NCBI RefSeq assembly: GCF_003324565.1
Contig: NZ_QOLA01000006.1
Location: 186,001-250,000, forward strand
Source: Streptomyces sp. SDr-06
GTDB taxonomy: Bacteria > Actinomycetota > Actinomycetes > Streptomycetales > Streptomycetaceae
Direction: 5' to 3'
Length of the DNA stretch: 64,000 nucleotides
Under the pieces are notes generated by a model. That model did no database searches and was not told the DNA's origin. It was given only the letters and a program-made list of their open reading frames with translations. This document shows, one piece after another, positions 20,275 to 39,152 of this stretch (position 1 is the stretch's first letter; each line of letters begins with the position of its first letter). A program made the position numbers and the translations under genes.

Positions 20275-21201
20275 TCAGCTGCGCAGCTTTTCCAGCCTGC
20301 GCAGGGCCGGGCCCAGCGACCGTCCTCTGCGCATCAGTCCGCCCCACGGATCGGTCTCCGCCTGTTCCACCGCGTCGGCGATGGTCCAGCGCCGTGCCGA
20401 CAGGTCGGGATCGTCGAGCTGTTCCCAGGCGAGAGGGGTCGCGACGGGGGCGCCCTCCTTCGCTCGCACCGTGTACGGCACCACGCTGGTCTGCGCGTAC
20501 GCGTTGCGCTGCACGTCGAGGTAGAGCCGACTGCCGCGGTCCTTCTTGCGGGTGGCGGTGGTGAGGTCGTCCGGGTGGGCCTCGGCCAGGACGTCGGCGG
20601 CCTGTTTGGCGAAGTCGTGGACGTCGTCGAAGCCGAGACCGCCGTTGAGCGCGGCCACGACGTGCAGCCCGCGGGAGCCGGTGGTCATCACCCCGCAGGC
20701 GAGGCCCAGGTCCTCCAGAAGTTCCCGCACCAGGCGGGCCGCGGAGCGGACGGCGTCGAAACCGCTGTCGTCGGCGGGGTCGAGATCGAACACCAGGCGG
20801 TCGGGGCGATCCACGTGTGAGGTCCTGGACTGCCACCGGTGCAGGGTGATGGCCGCCTGGTCGGCGAGGAACACCAGCGTCGCCGCATCGTCGCACACCG
20901 TGTGCACCACAGTGCCGCCCTCCTTGGACACCTCTGCCCGGGTGATCCAGTCCGGAAGATTGGCGGGGGTGTTCTTCTGCATGATGCGCGGCCCGTCGAG
21001 GCCGTCGGGCAGGCGCTCCAGCATCAGCGGGCGGCCCCGCAGGTGCGGGAGCATGAAGGGAGCGATCTGCCGGTTGTACGTGACGAGGTCGCCCTTGGTG
21101 ATGGCGTCGCCGCCGGAATCACCCGCGGGCAGAAGCGGTTTGTCCTGCCGGTGCAGGGTCAGCGTTCGCCGGCCGACGCGCAGGGATTCGGTGGAAGACA
21201 T
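20275..21201 (-). CDS. ligD: LigD-type polymerase domain protein (NHEJ primase-polymerase)
   Basis: A 308-residue archaeo-eukaryotic primase-like polymerase, the stand-alone POL domain of bacterial LigD. It adds nucleotides to broken DNA ends during non-homologous end joining. FDLDP (Asp139 and Asp141) gives the catalytic metal ligands. VHTVCDDAATLVFLADQAAI and TTGSRGLHVVAAL are further family motifs. Start ATG 21201. It is the most downstream gene of a leftward set with an HhH protein, a ligase and a phosphoesterase. No Ku gene is in the window. The symbol denotes the LigD domain, not a full multi-domain LigD. Confidence 0.9.
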   Translation of the reverse strand: MSSTESLRVGRRTLTLHRQDKPLLPAGDSGGDAITKGDLVTYNRQIAPFMLPHLRGRPLMLERLPDGLDGPRIMQKNTPANLPDWITRAEVSKEGGTVVHTVCDDAATLVFLADQAAITLHRWQSRTSHVDRPDRLVFDLDPADDSGFDAVRSAARLVRELLEDLGLACGVMTTGSRGLHVVAALNGGLGFDDVHDFAKQAADVLAEAHPDDLTTATRKKDRGSRLYLDVQRNAYAQTSVVPYTVRAKEGAPVATPLAWEQLDDPDLSARRWTIADAVEQAETDPWGGLMRRGRSLGPALRRLEKLRS

Positions 21202-21239
21202 CGAGGCACCCTCGATTCGTAAGGATCGGGCGGGCTGTT

Positions 21240-21887
21240 TCAGGTGGCCTGGGCCAGGCAGTCCTCCGCCACCTTCCGGTCCAGTGCGGCGCGGACGAGC
21301 GCGGCGGCGAGTTCGGCGCGCGGGGTGTCGCCCGCGAGGCGGGTCAGGGCCGCGGGGTCCTGAGGCAGGCCGAGCCGTTCGGCGCCCTCGATGGTCTTCG
21401 CGTCGAGGAAGGGCGCGAACTCGGGCCAGACGTCCTGGACTTCGCGCCGGAAGATGCCGGCTCCGGCAGGGCCGAGACCCGGGGTCCGCCGCAGCAGCTC
21501 CTCCAGCTCGTCCGGGTCGCCGTCGGCCTGCTTCCGCAGCGCCCGCAGGTCTCCGTGCCACTCGTCGAGCAACAGCTGTGCGCCGTCGCCGAGTTGGGTG
21601 GCGGTGCGCTCGTCGTAGCGTCGGTAGCCGCCCGCCCCCAGCGCGTCGACGCGCTGCTGCCACGTCGCGTCGCGCATGCGTCGCGGATCGCGCAGGCCCG
21701 CGTCGTACAGCGCTCTGGCGGTGGCCACCGCGACGGAGGCGCGGATCCGGGCGCTGAGCAGGCTCGCCAGCACCAGGGTGCGGTACAGCGGCTGAGGGGT
21801 GTCCTTGAGCCGGATGCCCGCTTCGGCGGCGTAGGTCTGCCCGTATCCGCGCAGCAGGGCTCGCATTACTTTGCTCTGGTCGGTCAT
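21240..21887 (-). CDS. HhH-GPD/endonuclease III-like protein
   Basis: A 215-residue helical protein from ATG 21887, overlapping the ligase stop by ATGA. The helix-hairpin-helix is LLRRTPGLGPAGAGIFRREV (about residues 134-153), followed by PFLDAKTIEGAERLG, whose Asp sits where base-excision glycosylases carry their catalytic Asp. Only one cysteine is present at the C-terminus, so the iron-sulphur cluster of endonuclease III is missing. It probably recognises or processes damaged bases. Its location inside a ligD-type gene set suggests a role in break repair. Confidence 0.82.
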   Translation of the reverse strand: MTDQSKVMRALLRGYGQTYAAEAGIRLKDTPQPLYRTLVLASLLSARIRASVAVATARALYDAGLRDPRRMRDATWQQRVDALGAGGYRRYDERTATQLGDGAQLLLDEWHGDLRALRKQADGDPDELEELLRRTPGLGPAGAGIFRREVQDVWPEFAPFLDAKTIEGAERLGLPQDPAALTRLAGDTPRAELAAALVRAALDRKVAEDCLAQAT

Positions 21888-22894
21888 GGCTCCGGGTGCT
21901 CCCTGACGACGTCGGTCGGATTCTTGTCGTCCCGCAGTCCCTGATAGCGGGGGTGGCGCAGCAGCCCGTCGCGCGTCCACTCCGCGAACGCGATCTGCGC
22001 CACGAGCCGTGGCCGCACCCAGCGGGCCGTGCGCGGCGCCGTACGGCCCGCGAAGGGCGATTCGGCCGTCCGCAGCCCGTCGAGCCGTTCCCGCAGCGCG
22101 AGCAGGGCCCGCCGGTCGAATCCGGTGCCGACCTTGCCCGCGTAGTGCAGCAGTCCGTCCCTGTAGTACCCGATGAGCAGAGCTCCGATCCCCTCCCGGC
22201 TGCCCGCGGGCTCCGTGAAGCCGCCCACGACGAATTCCTGACCGCGGGCGCATTTCAGCTTGAGCCAGTCGTCGGAGCGACGGGAGCGGTACAGGCTGTC
22301 GGCCCGCTTGGCGATGAGCCCCTCCCAGCCCCGGCGGCAGGCGTCGTCGAGCAGTTCGGCACCGCCCTCGTTGCGGTGGGTGGTGAAGCGCAGCGGTGCC
22401 GCGAAGGTCAGGGCGCGGCGCAGCAGGGACTTGCGGGTGCGCAGCGGAAGGCGCCGGACGTCCATGCCGTCCAGGCGCAGCAGATCGAAGACGTAGTACG
22501 TCACCGCGACGTTGCTCGCCGCGACATCCGCGGGCCGGGTGAGTCCCATGCGCTGCTGGAGCCGGGAGAAGTCCGTTCGGCCGTGGGAGTACGCGACGAT
22601 CTCGCCGTCGATCGTGAAGTCCGCGCAGGCCTGGGCGGCGAGCGCGTCGACGACCTCCGGGTAGGTGGCATCGAGCCGCCTCCCCGAACGGGATCGGAGC
22701 GTGACCCTGCCCCCTTCGCGCACCGCGAGGACGCGGATGCCGTCGAGCTTGCGCTCGAAGACCCAGCCCGCCGCGAAGTCACGGCGGCTGCTGAGCGTCG
22801 CCAGCATCGGGGACGCCGCCAGTTCGATGCCCGGCGCGGCCTCGGCCGTGCGGCCGTCGAATTCCGGCGGCAGCGTGTCAAGGAGGCCGGTCAT
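21884..22894 (-). CDS. ligD: ATP-dependent DNA ligase (LigD ligase domain type)
   Basis: A 336-residue nucleotidyl transferase ligase that seals DNA breaks with ATP. The adenylation motif is KLDGIR (Lys49), followed by the downstream family blocks GEIVAY, EGLIAKR and KLKCAR. The C-terminal OB-like part contains FVVGGFTEP and GKVGTGF. It corresponds to the LIG domain of LigD as an independent gene, and the short length supports this. It lies six bases after the phosphoesterase gene and overlaps the HhH gene by four bases, so it is part of one operon. Confidence 0.93.
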   Translation of the reverse strand: MTGLLDTLPPEFDGRTAEAAPGIELAASPMLATLSSRRDFAAGWVFERKLDGIRVLAVREGGRVTLRSRSGRRLDATYPEVVDALAAQACADFTIDGEIVAYSHGRTDFSRLQQRMGLTRPADVAASNVAVTYYVFDLLRLDGMDVRRLPLRTRKSLLRRALTFAAPLRFTTHRNEGGAELLDDACRRGWEGLIAKRADSLYRSRRSDDWLKLKCARGQEFVVGGFTEPAGSREGIGALLIGYYRDGLLHYAGKVGTGFDRRALLALRERLDGLRTAESPFAGRTAPRTARWVRPRLVAQIAFAEWTRDGLLRHPRYQGLRDDKNPTDVVREHPEP

Positions 22895-22900
22895 CGGCGC

Positions 22901-23560
22901 TCACCTCCGTTCCGGGTCCCAGGTCTCGGCGTCCGGCGCCTCGGCCAGCTGGCGCAGCGTGCGACCGCTGCGCACGGACCGGGCCCGCCGCGGGTCGGGG
23001 GTGCCGCCGCGGGCGCCGTGGGCGGAGCCGGTCCGTACCAGCAGCCAGGTCGGCTTCCGGCCCGTTCCTTCCTGCTCCTCACGGCCGTGGAAGCGGGTGA
23101 GCGCGTACTGCCCGTGAAGCTTCTCTCCGTGGAGGTCGAACGTGGCGTGGCCGTTCTCCAGTGCCTGTCCGAAGGGCACCGGGCGGTTGCGCTTGTCATG
23201 GCTGGTGGGCCGATAGGTGCCGCGGTCCCAGACGATGACGGTGCCGCCGCCGTACTCGCCCCGGGGGATGACGCCCTCGAAGTCCCGATAGGCCAGAGGA
23301 TGGTCCTCGGTGGGGATGGCGAGCCGCTTGTCGCGCGGATCGGTGGAGGGTCCTTTGGGCACCGACCAGGACTTGAGGACGCCGTCGACCTCCAGACGGA
23401 AGTCGAAGTGCATGGAACTCGCATCGTGGATCTGCACCACGAACGCGGGCTCGTCGTCGGTACGCGCTCCGTCCTCCGCCGTGCTTTCGCCGCGCGGCTC
23501 GCTCGTCCGGTCGAAGTGCCGCTTCCCGCGGTAGGTCCGCAAGTCGTCCTTCTCACTCAC
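22901..23560 (-). CDS. ligD: LigD-type 3-prime-phosphoesterase domain protein
   Basis: A 219-residue PE domain, which trims 3-prime phosphates and ribonucleotides from DNA ends. From GTG 23560 (G-rich ribosome binding site). Family motifs are VVQIHDASSMHFDFRLEVDG (His45, Asp46, His51 and Asp53), LKSWSVPKGPS and GVIPRGEYGGGTVIVWD. It is the first gene of the split ligD set. In single-chain LigD proteins this domain is joined to POL and LIG, so here the three activities are separate polypeptides. Confidence 0.93.
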   Translation of the reverse strand: MSEKDDLRTYRGKRHFDRTSEPRGESTAEDGARTDDEPAFVVQIHDASSMHFDFRLEVDGVLKSWSVPKGPSTDPRDKRLAIPTEDHPLAYRDFEGVIPRGEYGGGTVIVWDRGTYRPTSHDKRNRPVPFGQALENGHATFDLHGEKLHGQYALTRFHGREEQEGTGRKPTWLLVRTGSAHGARGGTPDPRRARSVRSGRTLRQLAEAPDAETWDPERR

Positions 23561-23922
23561 CGTGACCCCCTTCTCTCGGGTGTCGGCGGGGCCTGTGCGC
23601 GTGGGGTACCCCTGACCCCACCGGTCATGCGCGCTCCACCTCTCATCATGGCCCGCAGAGGTGGAGGGGGCATCAGTTCGCCGCCCCGGTGGCTCTGCGT
23701 GACGGAGGGGGAGCCCACCGCGCTGCCGCCGACGGGCCGCGGCGCCCACCTGCTCCGCTCGGTGCGCAGGCAATCCAAAACGTTCCTTCAAGCCATCGCG
23801 AACCGAAGCAACAAACATTGACGGAACCGAACAGCGGGTCTACGTTCCGGCCCTGTCGCACTTCTGCAACTCGCGTCTCACGCCCCTCCGTTGAGGCTCA
23901 ACCGACCCCACAGGAGCGCAGC
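23561..23922. other. Divergent spacer between the repair operon and the glycosidase
   Basis: About 360 bases holding the promoter regions of both flanking genes. No coding frame with a ribosome binding site was found. The stretch around 23770-23850 is A/T-richer, consistent with promoters. Confidence 0.4.
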
Positions 23923-26513: not shown

Positions 26514-27761
26514 TCAAAGCCCCTGTCCGGGCCGGGAGCTGACCCGAAGACGCCTCGCGGAGCGGAAGCCCCGGCCGACGGGGCCGTCCGTGTCGAGGGT
26601 CCATCGGAACGGCGCGAGGGACGCCAGCTCGGACAACAGCTCGTGCGCTTCCACGGCGGCGAGATGACGACCGAGGCACAGGTGGGGGCCCGTTCCCAGA
26701 GCCAGGCTCGGCAGATACTCCCGCCGGGCATCGAACCGGTCGGCATGGCTCCACCTCGCCTCGTCCCGGTTCGCCGAGGCGAGGTTGACGCAGACGAGGT
26801 CGCCCCGCCCCATCGACTGTCCGGCGACTTCGGTATCGGTGGTGCAGCGGCGCAGCGCCCAGGTCAGGGGGCACTCCCAACGCCAGCACTCGTGGAAGAC
26901 CGCGGGGGCGATGGAGGGGTCCGCGCGAAGGGACTCCAGCACGGTCCGGTCGCTCAGGACCGCGTACATCAAGGTGGCGAGGGAGCGGAACGGCGGCTCC
27001 GTGCCCGTGGACAGCAACAACCGTACTGCGGGCAGTAGTTGAGGGCCCGACCCGATGGCCGGGCTGTCCGCACGCGAGAGCAGGTCCACGAGACTGCCGG
27101 GCGGCCACGCCGACGGCATGGCGAGCAACTCCCCCATGGCGTCGGCCATCCGATGGCCGGGGTCCTCGGTCAACCCGACCGCCCAGGCGTACAGCGTGCC
27201 GATCCGGGTCCCGGGTGGCAGGCCGATCAAGCGCGCGATCGTCGTCAGGGCCACCGGAAAGGCCACGTCCGCGACGAGGTCACCGCCCGGCCGCGCCAGC
27301 GTGTCGGCGAGCCTCGCGGCCAGGGACGAGCGAATCTGGGCGCGGTGCGCGAGCACCGTCTGCCGGTTCATACCGGCATGGAGAACGTTTCTCCAGCTCC
27401 GGTGCTCCTCGTGGTCCATCTGCAGAAATGACCTGCCCACGACCCGGCCCATGCTGTCGTCGTAGGCCGATGAGGAAAAGGTGTCCTCGTCCCGCAGAAC
27501 ACGTTCGGCCGCGGCGAACGACACCACGTGCCACACGGGTGTGGAAGCGGTGTCCGTCAGGTCCGCGCCGGTCAGCACCCGCTCCCACGTCGAACCGTGG
27601 ACGGGCCGCCGTCGGCGCAGCGCCGCGAACTCGGCATGCGGATCGGCGTCCTTGGACCAGGCCCCGTCGCTGTCGAAAGCCCGGACCAGCGCGTACGCCT
27701 CACCGATGTCCCGCTCGACGTCGGCGGGGCTCGCATCGAGGAGGGAGACCGCGAGGGTCAT
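26514..27761 (-). CDS. Cytochrome P450, tailoring enzyme of the RiPP cluster
   Basis: A 415-residue heme monooxygenase from ATG 27761. The heme-binding loop is ALGTGPHLCLGRH (Cys362), and the ExxR motif is ECWR (291-294). The I-helix shows LSTGTEPPF where AGxxT is usual, so proton delivery may be atypical. Such deviations occur in P450s that catalyse coupling instead of simple hydroxylation. ATGA overlap with the GNAT gene shows it is the last gene of the peptide operon. It may oxidise or cross-link residues of the precursor peptide. No ferredoxin gene is nearby. Confidence 0.9.
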   Translation of the reverse strand: MTLAVSLLDASPADVERDIGEAYALVRAFDSDGAWSKDADPHAEFAALRRRRPVHGSTWERVLTGADLTDTASTPVWHVVSFAAAERVLRDEDTFSSSAYDDSMGRVVGRSFLQMDHEEHRSWRNVLHAGMNRQTVLAHRAQIRSSLAARLADTLARPGGDLVADVAFPVALTTIARLIGLPPGTRIGTLYAWAVGLTEDPGHRMADAMGELLAMPSAWPPGSLVDLLSRADSPAIGSGPQLLPAVRLLLSTGTEPPFRSLATLMYAVLSDRTVLESLRADPSIAPAVFHECWRWECPLTWALRRCTTDTEVAGQSMGRGDLVCVNLASANRDEARWSHADRFDARREYLPSLALGTGPHLCLGRHLAAVEAHELLSELASLAPFRWTLDTDGPVGRGFRSARRLRVSSRPGQGL

Positions 27762-28345
27762 GACGGCCTCCGGTCGGGGTGCGCGGCGCCGGGGAGTGTC
27801 TTGTCCGCTTCTCGGACGGCGGTGCACACGTCGCTCTCGGTGGAGTGGCGACGCCGGTTGCCCACCGTGGGGCCGGGTTCCGGAGGCGGTGGCTGCACCT
27901 CGAAGTCCAGCCTTTCCAGGAACGCCAGGCCGGGCGCCCAGTTCCGCGGACAGGTGGCGGTCACGCGTCGCAGCCCCCGGTCCGTCGCGTCCCGCAGCAG
28001 TCGCCGGGCTGCCAGCATGCCGATGCCCTTGCGGCGGGCTCGCGGGATGACGACGAAGAGCCCCACCGCACAGCTGCCCGCCTCGGGACAGTCCGCCACG
28101 GCGTCGACCACCCCCACCACCTCGCTCCCGTCGCACAGCACCAGCAGGTGCTTCTGGTCGAAGTCGGCGCCGTCCGGCAGGGAGTAGTACAGGCTCTGCA
28201 CGTCGGCGGGCAGCGCGGGGGAACCGGTGGCCGCGAGGAAGTAGTCGTCGCAGGCCGCCAGCACGCGGCTCACGGCCGCTTCGTCCTCCGGCAGCATGGG
28301 CCGCACCGTGAACGGTTCCTCGTCGGTGCCCTTGAGCGGTTCCAT
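27758..28345 (-). CDS. GNAT-family N-acetyltransferase of the RiPP cluster
   Basis: A 195-residue acetyltransferase from ATG 28345. The acetyl-CoA site has the form RRKGIGMLAARRLL (about residues 104-117) after a beta strand (VGLFVVIPRA), the classic GNAT motif A. The stop of the upstream B12-radical SAM gene lies four bases before it, and its own stop overlaps the P450 start. In RiPP clusters such enzymes cap an N-terminus or a lysine, and the precursor has Lys44 and Lys46 near Tyr37. The target is inferred. Confidence 0.88.
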   Translation of the reverse strand: MEPLKGTDEEPFTVRPMLPEDEAAVSRVLAACDDYFLAATGSPALPADVQSLYYSLPDGADFDQKHLLVLCDGSEVVGVVDAVADCPEAGSCAVGLFVVIPRARRKGIGMLAARRLLRDATDRGLRRVTATCPRNWAPGLAFLERLDFEVQPPPPEPGPTVGNRRRHSTESDVCTAVREADKTLPGAAHPDRRPS

Positions 28346-28349
28346 GTGG

Positions 28350-30731
28350 CTACGCCTCCTGCCCCTGGGCGAGATACCTCGGCTGGTTCTGGCGGGCACC
28401 GGCAGGTTCGCGGTACAGGAAGCCGTGACGAACCAGAGCGTCGGTGACCGCGTCCGCCTCCCCTGTCGCGGGGGTCTCCCCGTTCTGCCAGCGCTGCCAC
28501 GTCGCGACGGCCTCGCCCCGGAGCCGGATCGTCACCCCCGTGATGGGGTTGGAGAGGTAGGGGGTCGCGCGACGGGTCTCCATGGCGATGCCGATCTCGG
28601 GGCGCAGGCGGGCATCGGGCGACCGCACCTGCCGCCGCGAGGGCACCAGGAGACCGTGCCTGAGCAACAGCGCCGCCGTGTCGGCGGGGCCGCACCCCAG
28701 GTAGTGGCAGTTCTGGTACGTCAGCCAGGCCTCCAGGTCGCGCCAGGCAAGGCCGTCCAACTGCCGCCAGTCCAGGTCGCCAACCCAGTTGAGCTGGAGG
28801 AACCTGTCATGGGCCGGGTTGTACAGCGCCATGGCCGGTTCGGTGTCCGCTTCCGTGGCGGGCCAGGGCACGCGGGTGAAGGTCACGCCGGGGGCGAGGG
28901 TGAGCCGGGCGTCGGGATCCGGTGGCGGCCAGTCGAACAGCGGGACGGGGAGCGGCTCGGGCGGCGCGGCTCGCACACTGGCCCGCAGGAACGTGAATTC
29001 CTCGATCTCCCTCGCCATCGGGTCACGTACCGCGCGGAACCACACGCCGGTGTCGTCGGCGGAACCCGACGCGTCCTCGGCGACCCGCAGACTGTCCTGC
29101 TGCGACATGCCGGACACGGTGCGGTAGTCGCGGCTCAGACTCAGGTCCTCGGCAGGATCCGGCGGGTCGATCCGGATGCCGAACGCTTCTGGTTGCGTGC
29201 CGATCGGCGCGTGCACGTCCAGGACGAAGGGCGAACCGCCCCACGTCGTGTGGGCGACGCCGTAGTGATGCACGGACAGCCGCCGGACGGCCTCGGCGAA
29301 CGCGACCGTGCGTTCGGCCTCCTCCCGGGTCTCCCCCGGAAAGCCGTGGATCACGAACAGGTGGATCGGCACCCCGGCCTTCAGCATCGAGGTGATGTTC
29401 TCGCAGGCGTCCTCGATCCGCGTTCCCTTGCGCATCAGGTCGAGGACCCGCTGACTCGCCGATTCCAGGCCGAAATTCATCCGGCGACAGCCGGAGCGGT
29501 GCAGGAGGCCCGCGAGTTCGTCGTCCAGTCCTCCGGCGAACCGGGTCTCGCCGTACCAGTACACGTCGGCGGACGTCGACACCAACGCCTCGCTGACGTT
29601 GCGCAGGGTCCGCGGGCTCATGATCTCGTCGACGAACATGAAGTACCTGGAGCCGTGCTGGGCCCGCAGGGCGCGTACCTCTTCGGCCACCGCCTCGCCG
29701 GGACGCTGGCGGAAGGAGTTGCTCGCGAACGGGATCGAGCAGAAGGCGCAGTCCCAGGGGCAGCTGCGCGAGGCGAAGACCGGCAGGATCGGGCCCGGGG
29801 CGAGGTACTTGTCCAGGGGCAGGGCGTCGTAGGCGGGCTTGACCGCCGCCGAGATGTCGGCGCTCTGCCGGGGTGTGCGCAGCAGGATGCCGTTGTCGGC
29901 CCAGACCGCGCCCGGGATCTTCTCGCGGAAGTCCGCCGTGGCCGTCCCTCCCTCCGTGAGGCCGTCGACGACGGCGGCGAGGGCTCCCTCACCCTCTCCG
30001 GTCACCACCGTGTCGACGTAGTCGAACAGGGCGTGCCGGTGCTGCCAGCGGTCCACCAGACGGGTCGCGTAGTTGCCGCCGAGCACCACATGGACGTCCG
30101 GGCGCATGTCCTTCACCATGCTGAGGAACGTCACCGCGGCGATCAGCTGGGTGTCGGCGGACATGCTCACCGCGACGACCCCGACGGTCGGGTCGAGGAG
30201 GAGGTCCCGGTCGAGCATGCGGTCGAAGGCCCAGCGGTAGGGATTGCCTTCGGCGTCCCCGCTGGCCGCGAGCACCTGGAGCGTCGACTCGGCCGAGTAG
30301 GCGCACGTATTCGACACCAGGTCGAAATCGCAGGAGGGGAACGCGCCCGAGACGAGCCACAGCGCGTCGCGCAGGGTCCGTCGGGCGGCGTGGAAGGCGG
30401 CGGGGTCGTGCAGCGTCGCCAACGACTTCAGGCGGGCCTTGGCCTCCTCGATGTCGCGGATCGCCGCGGGGGCGACCAACTGGGCCCGTCGGCGCGCCCA
30501 TTCGTCCCGCAGGCCGACAGAACGGCGCGCGGCCGCCTTTCGCCGCAGCTGCTCCAGCGCGGGCGCCGAGAGCATCCAGTCGACGCATTCGATGCTCAGG
30601 TCGTAGGCGGTGGCCTCGTACCCGTGCGCTCGGAGGTCGCCCAGCAGCAGGGGGACGGCCAAGTGCGGGGCATAGGCGTTCCACAGGGGCGGATTCACCA
30701 GAACGGTCTTCATGCCCTTCTTGCTCCGCAT
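28350..30731 (-). CDS. B12-binding radical SAM enzyme of the RiPP cluster
   Basis: A 793-residue enzyme. The radical SAM cluster is CPWDCAFC (Cys324, Cys328, Cys331), placed after a cobalamin-binding-type region (about residues 7-250: VLVNPPLWNAYAPHLAVPLLLGDL and VVLGGNYATR). The C-terminal 250 residues, beyond the usual radical SAM barrel, include PqqD-like wing features (LLRHGLLVPS, LVRHGFLYRE) and may bind the leader peptide. B12-radical SAM proteins often methylate unactivated carbons or cyclise substrates. ATG 30731 follows GGAGGG at short spacing, and ATG 30713 is an alternative. The gene sits just after the precursor and a hairpin. Confidence 0.92.
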   Translation of the reverse strand: MRSKKGMKTVLVNPPLWNAYAPHLAVPLLLGDLRAHGYEATAYDLSIECVDWMLSAPALEQLRRKAAARRSVGLRDEWARRRAQLVAPAAIRDIEEAKARLKSLATLHDPAAFHAARRTLRDALWLVSGAFPSCDFDLVSNTCAYSAESTLQVLAASGDAEGNPYRWAFDRMLDRDLLLDPTVGVVAVSMSADTQLIAAVTFLSMVKDMRPDVHVVLGGNYATRLVDRWQHRHALFDYVDTVVTGEGEGALAAVVDGLTEGGTATADFREKIPGAVWADNGILLRTPRQSADISAAVKPAYDALPLDKYLAPGPILPVFASRSCPWDCAFCSIPFASNSFRQRPGEAVAEEVRALRAQHGSRYFMFVDEIMSPRTLRNVSEALVSTSADVYWYGETRFAGGLDDELAGLLHRSGCRRMNFGLESASQRVLDLMRKGTRIEDACENITSMLKAGVPIHLFVIHGFPGETREEAERTVAFAEAVRRLSVHHYGVAHTTWGGSPFVLDVHAPIGTQPEAFGIRIDPPDPAEDLSLSRDYRTVSGMSQQDSLRVAEDASGSADDTGVWFRAVRDPMAREIEEFTFLRASVRAAPPEPLPVPLFDWPPPDPDARLTLAPGVTFTRVPWPATEADTEPAMALYNPAHDRFLQLNWVGDLDWRQLDGLAWRDLEAWLTYQNCHYLGCGPADTAALLLRHGLLVPSRRQVRSPDARLRPEIGIAMETRRATPYLSNPITGVTIRLRGEAVATWQRWQNGETPATGEADAVTDALVRHGFLYREPAGARQNQPRYLAQGQEA

Positions 30732-30754
30732 CAGCCCTCCTCGTGGCCTGGTGT

Positions 30755-30788
30755 GACCGGCGCCCGGACGGCCGCCCGGGCGCCGGTC
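30755..30788 (-). terminator. Hairpin between precursor peptide and B12-radical SAM gene
   Basis: GACCGGCGCCCGG (30755-30767) pairs perfectly with CCGGGCGCCGGTC (30776-30788), a 13-bp stem with an 8-base loop. It starts 25 bases after the precursor stop on the leftward transcript. It probably acts as a partial terminator or stabiliser so that the precursor is made in excess. Confidence 0.75.
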
Positions 30789-30812
30789 GAGGTGGCACGG
30801 ATCCCGCCCGTG

Positions 30813-31004
30813 TCACTCTTGTTCATCCGATTCCGTCTCCTGCGTCGCGCCGGACACGTCCGGCCGCTTGGCCTTCATCGACGGCAGCAGGGCGTACTGC
30901 GAGCCGGTGCGTACTTCCGGCTGCACCACCTCGACCGCGGGGCCTTCACCGGTCGCGCCGGCCGCCGCCATGAGGTGTTCCAAATCCGCCTTCTTCTTCG
31001 TCAT
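30813..31004 (-). CDS. Probable RiPP precursor peptide, 63 residues
   Basis: Starts at ATG 31004 with a strong GGGAGGTG ribosome binding site. The peptide begins MTKKKADLEHLMAAAG, a short basic then helical leader, followed by an acidic stretch and QYALLPSMKAKRPD (residues 36-49), then the acidic tail ETESDEQE. The only aromatic residue is Tyr37 and there is no Cys or Trp. Position between a PqqD-like protein and a B12-radical SAM enzyme, plus the downstream hairpin, fits a RiPP substrate. The core boundary is not known. The residues after about 33 are my best guess, with the charged end as follower. Confidence 0.72.
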   Translation of the reverse strand: MTKKKADLEHLMAAAGATGEGPAVEVVQPEVRTGSQYALLPSMKAKRPDVSGATQETESDEQE

Positions 31005-31039
31005 CACTTCACCTCCCTTCCTGAGGAGCGCCGGGTCGG

Positions 31040-31375
31040 CTACACGATGGCGACCAGCTCCCCTTCGAGGAGCATGGCCATCGCCGACTCGAACGCCTCC
31101 TGAAGTTCCGGTTCGCCGATCCGGCCTTTGTTGAGCTCCTGGAACGAGGCGTAGATCTGCGGACCGGAGGATCCGTCGCACAGCTCGATCACCACCCATG
31201 CCACCGGGTTCAGGTAGTGGATGGCCGGCTTGTGCGGGGTGTAGGCAAGCATGCAGTTCCACTCCGGGATGGGACGGAACCTGGCGGAGCCGTTCTGCTC
31301 AAAGCAGTCGGCTCGTAGCCGGAACGGCCGGGTGGACACGCCGGTCGTCGAGGTCGCCGGGGAGCTGAGAGACAT
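31040..31375 (-). CDS. PqqD-like peptide recognition protein (RRE)
   Basis: A 111-residue wing-helix protein from ATG 31375 (ACGGAGGGATCG upstream). It overlaps the 3-prime end of the SPASM gene by 77 bases in another frame. Family features: PIPEWNCMLAYTPHKPAIHYLNPVAWVVIELCDG, then a helical end with LQEAFESAMAMLLEGELV. PqqD-like proteins bind the leader of a RiPP precursor and present it to radical SAM enzymes. It is placed between the SPASM enzyme and the precursor gene, as expected for a recognition element. Confidence 0.85.
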   Translation of the reverse strand: MSLSSPATSTTGVSTRPFRLRADCFEQNGSARFRPIPEWNCMLAYTPHKPAIHYLNPVAWVVIELCDGSSGPQIYASFQELNKGRIGEPELQEAFESAMAMLLEGELVAIV

Positions 31376-32339
31376 CGATCCCTCCGTTGGTCGTGGTGCA
31401 GAACGGGTCGGGGGCGTCCCAGCGACCGGTGAAGGCGAAGGCCGTGGACCTGCATCCGCCGGACGACCCCTGGGTCTGTTCGCAGGACTCGCAGCCGCCG
31501 TCCACGTGGGCGCCCCGGTTGTGGACGTAGACGGGGTTGTTCCAGGTGTCCAGCCAGCTGACCTCGCGGACGTTGCCGTAGTCGGCGTAGTCCCGCAGGT
31601 AGGCGCAGCCGACGGAGCGGCCGGTGGCGTCCACGCCGGCGTTCTGCCAGCAGCAGTTGCCGTCCTTGGGGTGCCAGGAGGTCATGAGGTGGACCGAGTC
31701 GGGCACGCGCAGCGCTTCCAGCGCGGCCATCTGGTCGGGCAGCCGCAGCGCCAGGTCCTTCCACTGGGTACGGGCCCGGCCCAGCGGGTACAGGCGCAGC
31801 ACCCCCACCCGGGTGACGCCGAGGTCGGCCGCCAGGTCGAACACGTCCTGGAGTTCGTGCACGTTGCGCCGCGTCATGATGATCAACAGGGATACGGAGA
31901 GCCCGGCGGTCTGTGCGTTCCTCACCCCCTGGACCGTCTTGTCGAAGGACCCCGGCACCCGCACGTGCCAGTCGTGGGTGGCCGCGGTCGCGCCCAGAAC
32001 GTCCACGTACAGCTCGCCGACCCCGATCTCCTTCAGCCGCGCGGCCACCTCCGGGGTCAGCAGCGTCGCGTTGGTGCGCAGCCGCGTCATCACATGAGGC
32101 GTCAACTCCCCGAGCAGGTCGAGGATGTCCGGCCGGTTGAGGGGTTCGCCTCCTTCGACGAAGGCCTCGATCACGCCGGAGTCGGCCATTTCGCGGATGA
32201 GCGCCGCGTACTCCTCCCGGCGCATCTCCTCGCCGCGGGGCCGGGCCTCGCAGTCTCCGTAGCACTGGCGGCATTTCAGGTTGCACGACTGCGTGACCTG
32301 CAACCAGCTCTTGAGGGGCTCATTGAGTACGAGATCCAT
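31299..32339 (-). CDS. SPASM-domain radical SAM peptide-modifying enzyme
   Basis: A 346-residue enzyme from ATG 32339 (GACGGAGACCC upstream). The cluster motif CNLKCRQC (Cys19, Cys23, Cys26) is unusually near the N-terminus, so there is no N-terminal accessory domain. A glycine-rich SAM-contact strand (FVEGGEPLNRPD) follows. The C-terminal auxiliary-cluster region has many cysteines (NCCWQNAG, VGCAYL, CESCEQTQG, GGCRS), the SPASM pattern. Such enzymes install thioether, C-C or C-O cross-links on precursor peptides. The precursor has no Cys or Trp, so cross-linking at Tyr37 or aliphatic carbons is most likely. Confidence 0.93.
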   Translation of the reverse strand: MDLVLNEPLKSWLQVTQSCNLKCRQCYGDCEARPRGEEMRREEYAALIREMADSGVIEAFVEGGEPLNRPDILDLLGELTPHVMTRLRTNATLLTPEVAARLKEIGVGELYVDVLGATAATHDWHVRVPGSFDKTVQGVRNAQTAGLSVSLLIIMTRRNVHELQDVFDLAADLGVTRVGVLRLYPLGRARTQWKDLALRLPDQMAALEALRVPDSVHLMTSWHPKDGNCCWQNAGVDATGRSVGCAYLRDYADYGNVREVSWLDTWNNPVYVHNRGAHVDGGCESCEQTQGSSGGCRSTAFAFTGRWDAPDPFCTTTNGGIDVSQLPGDLDDRRVHPAVPATSRLL

Positions 32340-32512
32340 GGGTCTCCGTCCTGGTCGGCACCGACGGGCACCGGCACTGAGAAATGACGGCTCGACGCGA
32401 CGGCGTCAGGGCCTGCGGGACAACGGGCACCTGAGTGCCGGGGGCGGATACAGGGCCGGGGAGTGGGCTGTGCGGGACGCCGCGCGTCCGCGGTGGTGCA
32501 CGGCAGGAGAGG
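32340..32512. other. Spacer between SPASM and HExxH genes
   Basis: About 170 bases, GC-rich, without a supported gene. Short frames on the minus strand (for example a 36-codon GTG frame) are not convincing. Confidence 0.35.
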
Positions 32513-32611
32513 TCAGGGCAGGTGCGGGGTGGTGGCGAGGGGTCTCGCGCCCAGGGAGATCAGGAGGTGTGCCCGGCGCGGGCCGGGACCGGTCGCCTTT
32601 CCACCTGTCAT
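32513..32611 (-). CDS. Possible 32-residue peptide coupled to the HExxH gene
   Basis: An ATG at 32611 overlaps the HExxH stop codon as ATGA and opens a 32-codon frame ending at 32513. The peptide starts MTGGKATGPGPRRAHLLISL. It has no aromatic residue and no Cys. Close coupling makes it a candidate for a second small peptide or leader, but the composition is also what GC-rich chance would give. Confidence 0.3.
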   Translation of the reverse strand: MTGGKATGPGPRRAHLLISLGARPLATTPHLP

Positions 32612-33663
32612 GACGGCACCCGTTCCCGGGGGCGGGGTCCGACCTTGCCCTCGTGGACCTGCGTCAGCCAGCGCAGGAAGTCCTGGCCCGCCGGGCCGAG
32701 GCAGCCCTGAGCGTGCCGGGCGACCTTGTCGAGCAGACTGGCGGCCCGCAGGACGGCGGTCTCGGCGGACTGCTCCGCGTCCGGCCCGCCGCCGTCGACG
32801 GCCCGCTGCTCGAACCATGCGGCCAGGTGGACGTAGACGTGCGCCGCCGCCAGGGCCCGGTCGACGGGCCATCGCGAGACCTTCGAGTCTCTGTGCCACT
32901 CCGGCGCCACCGTGGGTGCGGATTCGGTGTCGTAGGCCGGAGCGAAGATCGACCTCGTCGTCTGCAGGTCGTAGAGGCGCAGATGCACGAACTCGTGGAC
33001 GAGCGCCTCGGCCAGCCGCTCGGGGGTGCGCATGCAGCGGAGGGCCACGAACGCCGTTCCGGGAATCTCCTGGGTGGAGGCGCTGTCGAAGGCGTCGGGG
33101 CCGTCGACGGCGACGATGTAGCGGGCGTGCCGCACCAAGCCGCTGCACAGCTCGGGGGCCGTGGTGAGCATCAGCTCGACCGCGGCGCGCACCATCGCGG
33201 ATTCCTCGACCGTGCAGCCGGCCAGATGGTCGGCGTTCTCTCCCGCGCTGAGGTGGCGACGGAAGAGCGCCTCGAATTGCCGGTGGGAGGCGGCGGGCAG
33301 GGCGGGGTCGCTCAGCAGGTTCAGCCGGTGGCCGGACACCTTGATCCCCTGGTGGATTCCCGCGCGCTCCTCGGTGGCTGCCAGCGTGGCACCGGCGTGG
33401 AGCGGGTCTGCCCTTGCGGCCAACTGCCGTCGGCACGCGGGAGTATCGCGAATGCTGCGCAGCGCCTGATCCCACGCGTGCCGACTCACAGGATCCAGCG
33501 CTATGTCGGGGGTGACCCGGCGCCCTTTCGAATCCGCCGACCATAAATCGGGTGCGACGCATTCGAGAAGGAAATCATAGGTTTCGTATACTCGGTCGAT
33601 GATGCTTGCCGGTTGGGCGAACACGGGGTGCTCGGCCAGCGCAACAAGCGCAGGCTTCTGCAT
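32608..33663 (-). CDS. HExxH-motif enzyme of the RiPP cluster
   Basis: A 351-residue protein from ATG 33663. Its active-site motif is HEFVH (223-227) in the context EALVHEFVHLRLYD. It resembles the HEXXH motif domain found with radical SAM enzymes in FxsB-type and other RiPP loci, recently annotated as an alpha-ketoglutarate-dependent peptide beta-hydroxylase. A metalloprotease is the alternative reading of HExxH. No signal peptide. If it is a hydroxylase it would modify the same precursor, and if a protease it might remove the leader, which no other gene in the cluster obviously does. Confidence 0.8.
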   Translation of the reverse strand: MQKPALVALAEHPVFAQPASIIDRVYETYDFLLECVAPDLWSADSKGRRVTPDIALDPVSRHAWDQALRSIRDTPACRRQLAARADPLHAGATLAATEERAGIHQGIKVSGHRLNLLSDPALPAASHRQFEALFRRHLSAGENADHLAGCTVEESAMVRAAVELMLTTAPELCSGLVRHARYIVAVDGPDAFDSASTQEIPGTAFVALRCMRTPERLAEALVHEFVHLRLYDLQTTRSIFAPAYDTESAPTVAPEWHRDSKVSRWPVDRALAAAHVYVHLAAWFEQRAVDGGGPDAEQSAETAVLRAASLLDKVARHAQGCLGPAGQDFLRWLTQVHEGKVGPRPRERVPS

Positions 33664-34003
33664 ACAGTGGCCCCTGTCGAATTACTCCCTTACTCGTCAC
33701 AGATCTCGGCGAGTGCGATGGGCAGTGGTACCAACAGGCCGGTGGAACATGCTTGTTGGCGACAAATCAGCGACTGACGCTTACCGAAGATTCCACCGCG
33801 GGAAAGCCGTGTCAACCGTCCCGAGCAATCGAGACGGGGCTTGTTCGGCGGGGGTAAAAGGGCGGCATAGAAATCCAGGACGACAGGAATGGTCCGCCGC
33901 GCACTGGGTACGCGCTGCTGGTCGATTGTGTCCACTCACCGAATGTGCCGCAGCGGCTTCTTGAGCGCGCCGCGACCGCCCGCCGCAGAGAGAACCCTGC
34001 CCC
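33664..34003. other. Divergent promoter region of the RiPP cluster
   Basis: About 340 bases between the leftward RiPP operon and the exporter gene. The part near 33670-33800 is A/T-richer than usual here. CCAACA (33731-33736) and TGTTGG (33754-33759) form a short inverted repeat that could be an operator. No regulator gene is present in the cluster. A leftward frame at 33690-33935 has no supporting feature. Confidence 0.45.
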
Positions 34004-35263
34004 ATGAGGTTCGCCATTCCCTCAGCCCGTCTGCCGGGCGGGCCGACAACGACGGCCCTGCGTCGGCTCGTTGCCGCAAATGCGCTCAGCTCGGTGGGCG
34101 ACGGCGCGCGGTTCGCGGCACTCCCGCTCCTCGCGATGTGGAGCACCGGTCAGGTCTTCTGGGTGTCCGTGGTCGCGGCCGCGAGCCGGGCGGCCTGGCT
34201 GCTCGCACCGGTCATCGGCACCCTGGTGGACCGCATCCCCCGACGCCGGTCCATGGTGGGCGGGGACCTCGCGCGCTGCGTCACGCTGCTCGTGCTGTTC
34301 GCGGTGGTGCCGATCGTGCGGCCGCCGGTGGTGCTGCTGGTGCTGCTGGCCTTCGGCACGGGTGTCGCCGAGGTCTTCTTCGACAGTGCCGCGCAGGCCG
34401 TGGTGCCGGCGCTGGCCGCCGACCACGAACTGGAGCGGACGAACGCCCGGATCCTGGCCGCCCAGATCACCGGCACCGGGTTCATCGGACCGCCCTTGGG
34501 CGCCGTGCTGTGGGCGGTGTGGCACCCATTGCCCTTCCTCGCCGACGGTCTGACGTTCCTCGCGTCGGCGCTGCTCCTCACCACCCTGCCGGAGCGGCCC
34601 GCGCCCGGCGGAACAGAGGACCACGAACGCGGGCTGCGGGGTCTTGTGCGCGGCACCTGGGCAGGGCTGCGGTTTCTGGGCCAGGACCGGACGCTGCGCC
34701 GCCTCATGGTGGTGGTCGCCGTCCTCGGCGTTGGGCAACAGGCGGTCTACGCGGTTCTCGTCGTCTATGTGGAACAAAGGCTCGGCCTGCCGCCCTACGG
34801 CTACAGCCTGATGCTGGTCGCGGCGGCGGCCGGCAGCCTCGCCGGAGCGAGAACGGCGCCCGGGACCGTACGGCGGCTGGGTTCCGCGTGGAGCTTGCGG
34901 GCCTCGGTCGCCGTGTCGGCGCTCAGCTATCTCGTCGTCGCGGTGCTGCCACGATGGCCGCTCGTCGCCCTCATGCTGGCCCTCAACAGCGCGGGGGTGG
35001 TGCTGTGGAACGTATGCACCGTGTCGCTGCGGCAACGCCTGGCTCCCGAGTACATGCTGGGGCGGGTCACCAGTGGCTACCGGCTCGCCGCGTGGGGCGC
35101 GATGCCGGTCGGCGCCGCGGCGGGCGGCGCCCTGGCCCAGCACACCGGCCTCGACGCCCCCTGGACGCTCGCCGGTCTCCTTCTCCTGGCCTGCCTCCCG
35201 CTGCTTCCGGGAGCGGCCTCGGTTCGTCCGGGCCAGGACGACCCCGTTCCTCCGGCCCGCTAG
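34004..35263 (+). CDS. MFS transporter, probable exporter of the RiPP
   Basis: A 419-residue protein with about 12 hydrophobic segments. The loop 2-3 motif GTLVDRIPRRR is the usual MFS motif A relative. Divergent placement from the modification operon across a shared promoter region suggests it exports or gives immunity to the product. MFS carriers move small molecules or short peptides, so the mature compound is probably small. No ABC transporter with protease domain exists in the cluster. It overlaps the convergent gene end by four bases. Confidence 0.85.
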   Translation: MRFAIPSARLPGGPTTTALRRLVAANALSSVGDGARFAALPLLAMWSTGQVFWVSVVAAASRAAWLLAPVIGTLVDRIPRRRSMVGGDLARCVTLLVLFAVVPIVRPPVVLLVLLAFGTGVAEVFFDSAAQAVVPALAADHELERTNARILAAQITGTGFIGPPLGAVLWAVWHPLPFLADGLTFLASALLLTTLPERPAPGGTEDHERGLRGLVRGTWAGLRFLGQDRTLRRLMVVVAVLGVGQQAVYAVLVVYVEQRLGLPPYGYSLMLVAAAAGSLAGARTAPGTVRRLGSAWSLRASVAVSALSYLVVAVLPRWPLVALMLALNSAGVVLWNVCTVSLRQRLAPEYMLGRVTSGYRLAAWGAMPVGAAAGGALAQHTGLDAPWTLAGLLLLACLPLLPGAASVRPGQDDPVPPAR

Positions 35264-36667: not shown

Positions 36668-38905
36668 TCAGAGAGCGGGCGGGAACCTGTCCCACGCGCG
36701 GTGCTCGGCCAGCGCCCGGGTGACGCGCTCGACGACGGCCGGCCCGCTGTCGCCCAGCACACACCCGGCCTCGCCCTCCTCGATGCCGGACGCCTCGAAC
36801 ATGTCCCGGGCGTCGCCCCAGCCGCCGATCGCCTTGCCGTGCCGGTACGCCTCGGTCAGCAGCAACAGCACCCGCGGGTCGGGCCCCTGCGGCGCGGGCG
36901 AGCCGGCCTTGGCGTCCCGGGCGCCGTAGGCGTCCGCGCCGGGCCGGGGGGCTCCGGCGAACAGGAGGGCGTCGTACTCGACGGACCGGGCGGTGGCGAA
37001 GGTCCGCTGGACGGCGACGGGATCGCCCTCACTGTCCAGGTTCCCGCCGACCGGCGCGATGACGAGGGGGACCATGTCGGCGGCCAGGACGGCCTGCCGT
37101 GCGGCGCGTACGCCCTCCAGGTCGGCCGACGCGTCGGCGACGATGCCGACCACCCGGCCGTCCGTCGGCCAGGCACGTCCCAGCTGGGACAGCGCCGGGC
37201 TCGGAGCGACCTGGGCTGGCGCCACGGTGGCCTGGGGCGCGGGCAGGCCCAGCCCCGCCGCTACCTGCTCGCACAGCTCCGGGTCGATGTTCGCCAGCAC
37301 CTGCAAGTTGCGTTCCTTGACGGCCTGTTCGAAGCACTTGCTCAGCTCGAAGGTGTAGGCGGCGATGATGTGCTCGCGCTCCGGGGCGCTCATGCTGAGC
37401 CAGAAGAGCCGCGGCTGGCTGAAGTGGTCCTCGAAGGAGGCGGCCGCCTCACGGACCTTGCTCGTCTCGGGGATGCGCACCGGGGTCTCGACGTAGGCAC
37501 CCGTGTCGGCGCCCGCGAGGAAGGGGCATCCGCCGTCCAGGCTGTTGGGCCGGTAGGGGGCGACGCCGGTGTGGACGGCGGTCTGGTGCATGCCGTCGCG
37601 GAGCATGTCGTTGACGGGCGCGTGGGGCCGATTGATCGGAATCTGCGCGAAGTTGGGGCCGCCGAGCCGGCTGATCTGGGTGTCAAGGTAGGAGAACAGA
37701 CGGCCCGCGAGCAGCGGGTCGTCGGTGATGTCGATGCCGGGGACCAGATGGCCGGGGTGGAAGGCGACCTGCTCGGTCTCGGCGAAGTAGTTCTTGGTGT
37801 TGGCGTTCAGGGTCATCAGGCCGACGGGCTGAACGGGAGCGAGCTCCTCAGGGACGATCTTGGTGGGATCGAGGAGGTCGATTCCCTCGAAGGTCTGCTC
37901 GGGGGTGTCCGGGAAGACCTGGATGCCGAGCTCCCACTGGGGGAAGGCGCCCGCCTCGATCGCGTCGAAGAGGTCCCGGCGATGGAAGTCCGGGTCCATC
38001 CCGTTGATCAGCTGGGCCTCTTCCCAGACCAGGGAGTGCACACCCAGTTTCGGCTTCCAGTGGAACTTCACGAGCACACTCCGCCCGGCCGTGTTGACCA
38101 TGCGGAACGTGTGGACGCCGAAGCCCTCCATCATGCGGTACGAACGCGGAATGCCGCGGTCGGACATGTTCCACAGCGTGTGGTGGGTGGCCTCGGTGTG
38201 CAGGGAGACGAAGTCCCAGAACGTGTCGTGCGCGCTCTGGGCCTGCGGGATCTCGCGGTCGGGGTGCGGCTTCGCGGCGTGCACGACGTCCGGAAACTTG
38301 ATCGCGTCCTGGATGAAGAACACCGGAATGTTGTTGCCCACGAGGTCGAAGGTGCCCTCGTCGGTGTAGAACTTCGTCGCGAAGCCGCGGGTGTCGCGCA
38401 CGGCGTCGGACGAACCACGTGAGCCCAGGACGGTGGAGAACCGCACGAACACCGGGGTCTCCATGTCCTTGGCCAGGAAGGCCGCCCGCGTCACCTCGGT
38501 GGCGGTGCCATAGCCCTGGAAGACGCCGTGGGCGGCCGCGCCGCGTGCGTGCACCACACGCTCGGGAATCCGCTCATGGTCGAAGTGGGTGATCTTCTCG
38601 CGCAGATGGTGGTCCTGGATGAGGACGGGGCCGCGCGGTCCGGCCTTCAGCGAGTGGTCGCTCTCGTACAGGCGGTTCCCCTGCGCCGTGGTGAGGTACG
38701 CGCCGCTCTGCGCGGTGCGCGCCGGGTCGGCGCCCGTGGCCTGACCGGTGGGACTCACGGTTTCCGGACCCCGCTGGTCCGGCTTCGGGGGCAGCGGACC
38801 GGCGGGCTCGGTGGGCTCGGCCACCGACGGCGTCGCAGCTCCCGGCTTGCCCGGAAGACCGCCCCCGTTGGCCGCGGCATCTGCGTGAGGGTGCTCTGTG
38901 GTCAT
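36668..38905 (-). CDS. katE: Large-subunit catalase (KatE/HPII type)
   Basis: A 745-residue heme catalase from ATG 38905 (GGGAG, then ATGAGC spacing). Catalytic motifs are [12 protein letters not shown] (His119) and the proximal RLFSYLDTQ (Tyr406). The long C-terminal part (from about residue 600: [20 protein letters not shown]) is the DJ-1/flavodoxin-like domain that distinguishes large-subunit catalases. It disproportionates hydrogen peroxide in the cytoplasm, typically in stationary phase or osmotic stress. An ATG two codons upstream (38911) is also possible. The N-terminal 60 residues are Pro/Gly-rich. Confidence 0.97.
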
Positions 38906-39152
38906 GCTCATCTCCCGGTGGCGCTCGTCAGGACACCTCAGCCATGACCGCAGTGCCGCGAACCTCAAACAGCCTCCGGGTGGTTGTCACTCGCATCCGC
39001 AGGAGTCCATGGCATCTGCCGCTGCCTTGCACGGCCGAGGTCGTCGACGCCGCGTACCCGCTGTCCAGCGAAGAACGCCCGCTTCCCCGAGGAAGGCTCG
39101 ATCTCCTCCCGGCCGCGCGAGGCCCCCGAAGACGGGCAGCACGCCCACCACG

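What the first reader, a model, noticed from the sequence alone, without database searches (positions are those of the whole stretch)
26514..35263. Unfamiliar RiPP gene cluster with five tailoring enzymes
Seen: a leftward run of HExxH enzyme, SPASM radical SAM, PqqD-like recognition protein, 63-residue peptide, B12-radical SAM, GNAT and P450, with a divergent MFS exporter. Several joints are overlaps (ATGA) or a few bases. Known: each family modifies or handles RiPP precursors. Inferred: one peptide with a single aromatic residue is changed by five different chemistries (SPASM cross-link, B12 methylation or cyclisation, HExxH hydroxylation, acetylation, P450 oxidation). I know no described family with this combination.
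Basis: partly seen in the sequence, partly recalled or inferred. Interest (0 to 1): 0.88.

Follow-up and report, generated by a model that had tools for sequence, protein, structure and literature searches.

The report
New five-enzyme bacterial peptide-tailoring gene cluster
A Streptomyces genome carries a compact, transferable set of eight genes that almost certainly makes a small, heavily modified peptide of a kind not described before, and the heart of the set (peptide, recognition protein and one radical enzyme) recurs in distant bacteria with a shared Val/Ile-Arg-Ser/Thr site.

Summary
In close Streptomyces loci, DNA homology covers window 26.5-35.2 kb and stops at both edges. Order: HExxH enzyme, SPASM radical SAM, discrete recognition protein (RRE), 63-aa precursor, B12-radical SAM, GNAT, P450, plus a divergent MFS. 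The precursor is real: residues 19-46 show 0-2 amino-acid changes beside 1-9 silent ones, while the tail is free to change. Its core survives in a divergent Streptomyces and in Rhodococcus. New here: SPASM + RRE + precursor form a module shared with Alpha- and Betaproteobacteria. A profile of proteobacterial precursors alone finds this peptide as the only significant hit in the 8.6-Mb genome. There the motif lies before a NIPSNAP-like domain, or in 3-5 tandem repeats; only the Arg is invariant across all. A separate Streptomyces cluster type pairs a B12-radical SAM relative (~44% identical), without SPASM, with a precursor retaining R-x-x-S-K-YALL. Hence my assignment (inferred): SPASM acts at Val-Arg-Thr, the B12 enzyme C-methylates at Tyr-Ala-Leu-Leu, HExxH hydroxylates, P450 and GNAT are accessory, MFS exports. 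No equivalog-level protein model and no paper found describes it. New variant of a known kind; product chemistry unproven.

The parts
32608..33663 (-). alphaKG-HExxH type peptide hydroxylase (HEFVH motif)
   Evidence: TIGR04267 57.5 bits vs cut-off 40; aligns over the HExxH region with solved ChlH 8s5f; HExxH kept in all 7 actinobacterial loci checked
31299..32339 (-). SPASM radical SAM peptide maturase (CNLKCRQC), PqqE/MftC-like
   Evidence: Pfam Radical_SAM and SPASM; best solved relative PqqE 6c8v, E 3.8e-21 over profile positions 8-316; family tree in two phyla
31040..31375 (-). discrete RiPP recognition element (PqqD-like winged helix)
   Evidence: AlphaFold2 model pLDDT 86.5; Foldseek top hits TbiB1-leader complex, PqqD, CteB, LarB1; follows SPASM in nearly all relatives
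30813..31004 (-). 63-aa precursor peptide, MTKKKADLEHLMAAAGATGEGPAVEVVQPEVRTGSQYALLPSMKAKRPDVSGATQETESDEQE; strong ribosome site GGGAGGTG upstream
   Evidence: homologues beside the enzymes; core under purifying selection; sole significant hit of a proteobacterial precursor profile in the genome
30867..30950 (-). conserved core of the precursor, residues 19-46 (GEGPAVEVVQPEVRTGSQYALLPSMKAK); Val31-Arg32-Thr33 likely SPASM site, Tyr37-Ala-Leu-Leu likely B12-enzyme site
   Evidence: site assignment is inference
28350..30731 (-). B12-dependent radical SAM enzyme, probable peptide C-methyltransferase
   Evidence: Pfam Radical_SAM over, B12-binding just under cut-off; best NCBIfam rSAM_ocin_1 RiPP C-methyltransferase 113 bits, under cut-off 281.85
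27758..28345 (-). GNAT N-acetyltransferase
   Evidence: Pfam Acetyltransf_1 33.6 bits; kept in all Streptomyces loci of the cluster
26514..27761 (-). cytochrome P450 with heme Cys (GPHLCLG) and ExxR (ECWR); I-helix reads TGTEPP in place of the usual Thr
   Evidence: Pfam p450; motifs in 5 homologues
34004..35263 (+). divergent MFS exporter
   Evidence: Pfam MFS_1/MFS_3; kept with the cluster in other loci, place varies

Best explanation
This is a mobile biosynthetic cluster for a ribosomally made, multiply tailored peptide (RiPP) of a new family. Shown: the gene set, the conserved precursor, the predicted RRE fold and the block-wise conservation. Inferred steps: (1) the RRE binds the N-terminal leader and presents the peptide to the SPASM radical SAM enzyme, which modifies the Val31-Arg32-Thr33 site; my best guess is a radical C-C or C-O bond involving the Arg side chain (about 0.35 for Arg as the residue bonded). 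(2) The B12-radical SAM enzyme C-methylates the peptide at Tyr37 or the adjoining Ala-Leu-Leu, most likely the Tyr beta-carbon (about 0.4). (3) The HExxH enzyme beta-hydroxylates one or more core residues in the Q-P-E or Q-Y region. (4) P450 oxidation, in close Streptomyces only, and N-acetylation by GNAT follow. (5) A host protease, not encoded here, trims leader and acidic tail, and the MFS protein exports the product.
For: Homology spans only 26.5-35.2 kb in the close Streptomyces loci. The precursor core shows 0-2 amino-acid changes against 1-9 silent ones, the tail 6-10 amino-acid changes in 17-18 codons. The core is kept in a divergent Streptomyces (G312) and in Rhodococcus ruber together with HExxH, SPASM, RRE, B12-rSAM and MFS. 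The RRE fold is confirmed by model and fold search. A proteobacterial-only precursor profile hits this peptide alone in the genome, E 1.4e-4, next 0.23; profile-profile probability 95.9%. Arg is invariant across all 16 proteobacterial precursors of alignment A5 and all 9 actinobacterial ones. Where SPASM is missing (L022/L023), VR[ST] is lost while R-x-x-S-K-YALL stays with the B12 enzyme. B12-rSAM ApyD makes beta-methyltyrosine (PMC11117315). alphaKG-HExxH enzymes hydroxylate His, Asp, Phe, Gln and Pro (PMC13060819).
Against: No product, mass or enzyme assay exists, and no protease is in the cluster. The Roseomonas precursors keep VRSGEQFLILP without a B12-rSAM gene found by BLAST in the locus, so the YALL-to-B12 link is not exclusive. 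Arg is also kept in L022/L023, which lack SPASM. The B12 enzyme lies under every NCBIfam cut-off, so its reaction type is unproven.
Confidence: 0.7

Rival explanations
1. The product is a small redox cofactor or signalling molecule of the PQQ/mycofactocin sort, cut from the core, rather than an exported specialised peptide.
For: The SPASM enzyme's best solved relative is PqqE; a discrete PqqD-like partner is used; one Tyr with an upstream Glu in the core.
Against: Glu30 and Tyr37 are seven residues apart, unlike the Glu-Tyr pair of PqqA; the mycofactocin and PQQ models score far under cut-off (121 vs 265; 102 vs 381); sporadic distribution (4 of 383 Streptomyces), an exporter, and a GNAT and P450 suit a specialised metabolite; no dedicated dehydrogenases are in the cluster.
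Confidence: 0.12
2. The SPASM enzyme makes a cyclopropyl amino acid from Val31/Ile, as TvgB does on TVGG repeats, with Arg-Ser/Thr serving as its recognition residues.
For: The residue before Arg is always Val or Ile in precursors with the SPASM enzyme; tandem repeats of the motif in Hyphomicrobiaceae (L072-L074) recall the TvgA repeats; TvgB forms cyclopropylglycine from Val (PMC9062424).
Against: The motif is VRT/IRS, not TVGG; similarity to TvgB itself was not tested; the invariant residue is Arg.
Confidence: 0.15
3. The SPASM enzyme joins Arg32 to Tyr37 as in the streptococcal RRR peptide.
For: An Arg-Tyr (C-delta to C5) bond is known (PMC8326336); Arg and Tyr keep the same spacing of 5 in all actinobacterial precursors.
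Against: Elioraea precursors of the same SPASM family have no aromatic residue in the core, and the spacing is also kept in L022/L023, where SPASM is missing. It could at most be a local specialisation.
Confidence: 0.12
4. The small ORF is not the substrate, and the enzymes act on something else or are conserved separately.
For: The ORF is short and is not recognised by any family library.
Against: Synteny, purifying selection on the core, a cross-phylum profile match and a good ribosome-binding site.
Confidence: 0.03

Closest known systems
Aminopyruvatides (apy cluster, Burkholderia; PMC11117315)
   Same: B12-radical SAM enzyme and P450 acting on one RiPP precursor with an RRE; the B12 enzyme makes beta-methyltyrosine
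   Different: no MNIO and no precursor C-terminal Asp here; SPASM, HExxH and GNAT instead; ApyD model 83 bits vs cut-off 750
Biphenomycins (bip/bpm; PMC12707348, PMC12257519)
   Same: B12-radical SAM enzyme plus alphaKG-HExxH type hydroxylase in one RiPP cluster
   Different: no MNIO, arginase or TldD protease; only one aromatic residue, so no biaryl bond within one peptide
PQQ / mycofactocin SPASM + PqqD systems
   Same: SPASM radical SAM enzyme of PqqE type with a discrete PqqD-like chaperone
   Different: precursor unrelated; scores far under the equivalog cut-offs; extra tailoring enzymes
alphaKG-HExxH peptide hydroxylases (ChlBH/ChlH, PflC, PesO; PMC12636437, PMC13060819)
   Same: HExxH domain over the family cut-off, alignable to ChlH 8s5f; the pfl cluster also has a GNAT
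   Different: stand-alone gene beside separate SPASM and B12 enzymes; target residue unknown
TVG cyclopropylglycine peptides (PMC9062424)
   Same: SPASM enzyme, repetitive motif with Val in relatives, Fe/alphaKG oxidase partner
   Different: motif VRT not TVGG; discrete RRE; NIPSNAP-like precursor domain in proteobacteria
TOMM-type kinase/cyclase RiPP systems
   Same: proteobacterial relatives carry a TIGR03903-like cyclase/AAA protein (371.6 bits)
   Different: that protein is under the cut-off 705.75 and matches only from profile position 273 on; the modifying enzyme beside it is a SPASM radical SAM enzyme

Membership tests
RiPP biosynthetic cluster | genetically encoded precursor beside tailoring enzymes, conserved together | tested here: met
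RiPP biosynthetic cluster | recognition element for the leader | tested here: met
   fold matches TbiB1-leader, PqqD, CteB, LarB1; binding itself not tested
RiPP biosynthetic cluster | a modified, released peptide product | not testable with these tools
   needs mass spectrometry
alphaKG-HExxH peptide hydroxylase | TIGR04267 domain with HExxH | tested here: met
   57.5 bits vs cut-off 40; HEFVH and ChlH alignment
alphaKG-HExxH peptide hydroxylase | alpha-ketoglutarate-dependent hydroxylation | not testable with these tools
   needs enzyme assay
Aminopyruvatide (apy) | MNIO enzyme in the cluster | tested here: not met
   no MNIO/DUF692 match in the eight proteins scanned
Aminopyruvatide (apy) | precursor C-terminal Asp | tested here: not met
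   precursors end in varied residues
Biphenomycin | MNIO and two aromatic core residues for the biaryl bond | tested here: not met
   one Tyr in the core; no MNIO
Mycofactocin / PQQ | maturase over the equivalog cut-off | tested here: not met
   121 vs 265 and 101.8 vs 381.35 bits
rSAM_ocin_1 RiPP C-methyltransferase (TIGR03975) | score over the curated cut-off | tested here: not met
   113 vs 281.85 bits; related but outside
TVG cyclopropyl peptides | Val in TVGG repeats converted to cyclopropylglycine | tested here: inconclusive
   TVGG absent; Val/Ile before Arg conserved; reaction not testable
Aromatic-crosslinked SPASM peptides (cyclophane, RRR type) | aromatic residue in the crosslink motif | tested here: not met
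   Elioraea cores lack aromatics; not met for the SPASM family as a whole, open for the actinobacterial branch

The most novel reading that the evidence does not exclude
The SPASM + RRE pair found in two phyla performs a reaction not yet seen in RiPPs at the tripeptide [VI]-R-[ST], for example a bond within or next to an arginine. In proteobacteria the same reaction is applied, in some cases repeatedly, along the N-terminal tail of a NIPSNAP-like protein, so that one chemistry serves both a small exported natural product and a modified full-length protein.
Probability: 0.35. Interest if true: 0.85.

Novelty: new variant of a known kind. Interest (0 to 1): 0.62.

Why it matters
It defines a RiPP family by its precursor rather than by one enzyme. 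The comparison with relatives suggests which enzyme acts at which part of the peptide, so the five chemistries can be tested one at a time. The wider SPASM/RRE family, with an invariant Arg and a NIPSNAP-like precursor domain, appears uncharted and should be simple to reconstitute. The cluster sits at different sites in different strains, so natural variants exist to compare.

Tried and rejected
Precursor tblastn over Streptomyces gave many matches at E 0.01-1; the best unexplained one (G015, E 3.4e-4) is an antisense reading of a UvrD-like helicase gene. A C-terminal RRE fused to the B12 enzyme looked plausible by eye, but profile comparison with the discrete RRE gave 0.6% probability. Plasmid search with the precursor: none; with SPASM: one Microvirga plasmid. 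A sample of 395 genomes of the class gave only the window's own genome. PADLOC gave only weak generic radical SAM matches.
Full report
Observation. The window lies in an 8.58-Mb genome (G000:C64:186001-250000) of the Streptomyces type: its nearest cluster relatives are named Streptomyces. The P450 starts at the ATG at 27761, overlapping the GNAT stop as ATGA; RRE and SPASM overlap by 77 bases; the B12 enzyme and GNAT are 4 bases apart. Wider gaps lie between HExxH and SPASM (268), precursor and B12 enzyme (81), and RRE and precursor (35).

Recognition protein. Pfam PqqD matched only at E = 0.13. An AlphaFold2 model from 20 relatives (pLDDT 86.5) matched RREs as its first solved structures: TbiB1 bound to leader peptides, PqqD, CteB and LarB1. 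The label PqqD-like recognition protein is therefore right.

Conservation. The B12 enzyme and the precursor were sought in about 390 genomes of the genus, the SPASM enzyme in 383 (4 carriers, the window's genome included), and the SPASM alignment in genome contigs (22 loci). G151 and G020, and L061-L063 (Streptomyces sp. Y2F8-2, Streptomyces sp. V4I2, S. flaveolus), carry the full eight-gene set in the same order; G312 lacks P450 and has MFS between the B12 enzyme and GNAT. Rhodococcus ruber (L064) has HExxH-SPASM-RRE-precursor-B12 enzyme, then (by eye) a kinase-like and a PP2C-like gene, then MFS. DNA alignment of the window to the close loci covers 26.5-35.2 kb and nothing outside, so the block sits at different chromosomal sites. 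In the SPASM tree the actinobacterial clade is separate and fully supported, and G312 groups with Rhodococcus, which suggests transfer.

Precursor. Against the window, the four close homologues show 0-2 amino-acid changes and 1-9 silent changes in the 28-residue core, but 6-10 amino-acid changes in the 17-18-codon tail. The more distant G312 and Rhodococcus peptides keep PAVE[VT][VI]QPE[VI]R[ST]xxQYA[LM][LM]PSM[KR]A.

A wider module. SPASM relatives of 46-55% identity occur in Roseomonas and related genera, Elioraea, Hyphomicrobiaceae, Reyranella, Variovorax and a betaproteobacterial MAG, and on a Microvirga plasmid. The SPASM gene is nearly always followed by the RRE gene and then by a precursor-like protein. 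These have a leader, a disordered stretch with [VI]R[ST], and a C-terminal domain that Foldseek places with NIPSNAP/antibiotic-monooxygenase folds (model pLDDT 67.8 overall, well defined in the domain; Foldseek E 1e-3). In Hyphomicrobiaceae MAGs the motif is repeated: three times in L072 and L073 and five times in L074 (for example PAVDTVNQQVRTSMSVPFAPHMK), in the same register as PAVEVVQPEVRTGSQYALLPSMK of the window. Neighbours in several of these loci include a subtilase and a cyclase/AAA protein resembling TIGR03903. To test homology without circularity, a profile was built from proteobacterial N-termini only. In the window's whole genome, six frames, its only significant match is the window peptide (E 1.4e-4; next 0.23). 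Profile-profile comparison with the actinobacterial peptides gives 95.9%. Arg is the only N-terminal-region residue invariant in the proteobacterial alignment A5, and it is invariant among the actinobacterial peptides too.

The B12 enzyme. Relatives of about 44% identity in two other Streptomyces (L022, L023) lie beside a 50-aa precursor ending VEP[VL]TPKR[AV]NSKYALLQDG plus three residues; in L023 a JmjC-like gene, an MFS gene and a methyltransferase follow. No SPASM homologue was found in those loci. There the [VI]R[ST] motif is lost but R-x-x-S-K-YALL is kept. Four further loci (L024-L027, 36-41%) pair it with a second B12 enzyme; a 41-aa peptide ending HKQFVVD was read in L024-L026, and a PhyH-like gene identified in L024. 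These patterns are the basis for assigning SPASM to Val-Arg-Thr and the B12 enzyme to Tyr-Ala-Leu-Leu. The Roseomonas precursors (VRSGEQFLILP, no B12 enzyme found in the locus) show the second link is not exclusive.

Mechanism. Known relatives fix the likely chemistry: ApyD, a B12-radical SAM enzyme, makes beta-methyltyrosine (PMC11117315); alphaKG-HExxH enzymes beta-hydroxylate His, Asp, Phe, Gln or Pro (PMC13060819); SPASM enzymes make C-C, C-O or C-S bonds, including Arg-Tyr in RRR and Thr-Gln ether in TQQ (PMC8326336), or cyclopropylglycine from Val (TvgB, PMC9062424). An aromatic crosslink cannot be the common SPASM reaction, as Elioraea cores contain no aromatic residue. P450 keeps its heme Cys and ExxR, but its I-helix reads TGTEPP in all five homologues. 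No protease is encoded in the cluster.

Novelty. No equivalog-level NCBIfam model passes its cut-off for the B12, SPASM, P450 or GNAT protein. Paper searches for these combinations found the apy, biphenomycin, pfl/pos, pes and tvg systems but not this one. The library holds open-licence papers only, so an undetected report is possible, and the supplement of PMC9062424, which goes with 22 predicted clusters, could not be read. I file it as a new variant of a known kind: a RiPP cluster with a new precursor family and a new set of enzymes.

Noticed in passing
L072:10323-11051, L073:10333-11055, L074:10406-11296: Hyphomicrobiaceae precursor proteins with 3-5 tandem copies of a VRT-SVPF-type unit followed by a NIPSNAP-like domain, next to SPASM and RRE genes.
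   Followed up: partly
L022:6869-9617, L023:4019-11134: A second Streptomyces RiPP-like cluster: 50-aa precursor with SKYALLQDG near its end, B12-radical SAM enzyme, and in L023 a JmjC-like enzyme, MFS and methyltransferase.
   Followed up: partly
L024:7992-14933 (similar in L025-L027): Tandem B12-radical SAM enzymes with a 41-aa peptide (ending HKQFVVD) between them and, in L024, a PhyH-like dioxygenase and an HPr-kinase-like protein.
   Followed up: no
L066:1748-6792: In Roseomonas the module is flanked by a subtilase (S8) and a cyclase/AAA protein; the same type of cyclase in L067 matches TIGR03903 (TOMM kinase/cyclase) at 371.6 bits.
   Followed up: partly
L079:10829-11629, L069:2392-3132: In Variovorax and a betaproteobacterial MAG the precursor is followed by a possible matrixin-like metalloprotease (HEIGHALGFGKIWSH in L069); Pfam match for L079 only E 0.21.
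   Followed up: no
L063:6663-8101: The MFS gene of the S. flaveolus cluster is spread over three frames, so it is broken or carries sequencing errors.
   Followed up: no
33544-33546: A single TTA codon (codon 40 of the HExxH gene) is the only one in the cluster, which may make it bldA-dependent.
   Followed up: no
20275-23818: Three - strand ORFs resembling LigD-type polymerase, ATP-dependent ligase and 3'-phosphoesterase parts of bacterial non-homologous end joining (by eye, no family scan).
   Followed up: no
36668-38968: A catalase-like gene (by eye) lies just beyond the cluster; not part of it, since homology to other loci stops at 35.2 kb.
   Followed up: no
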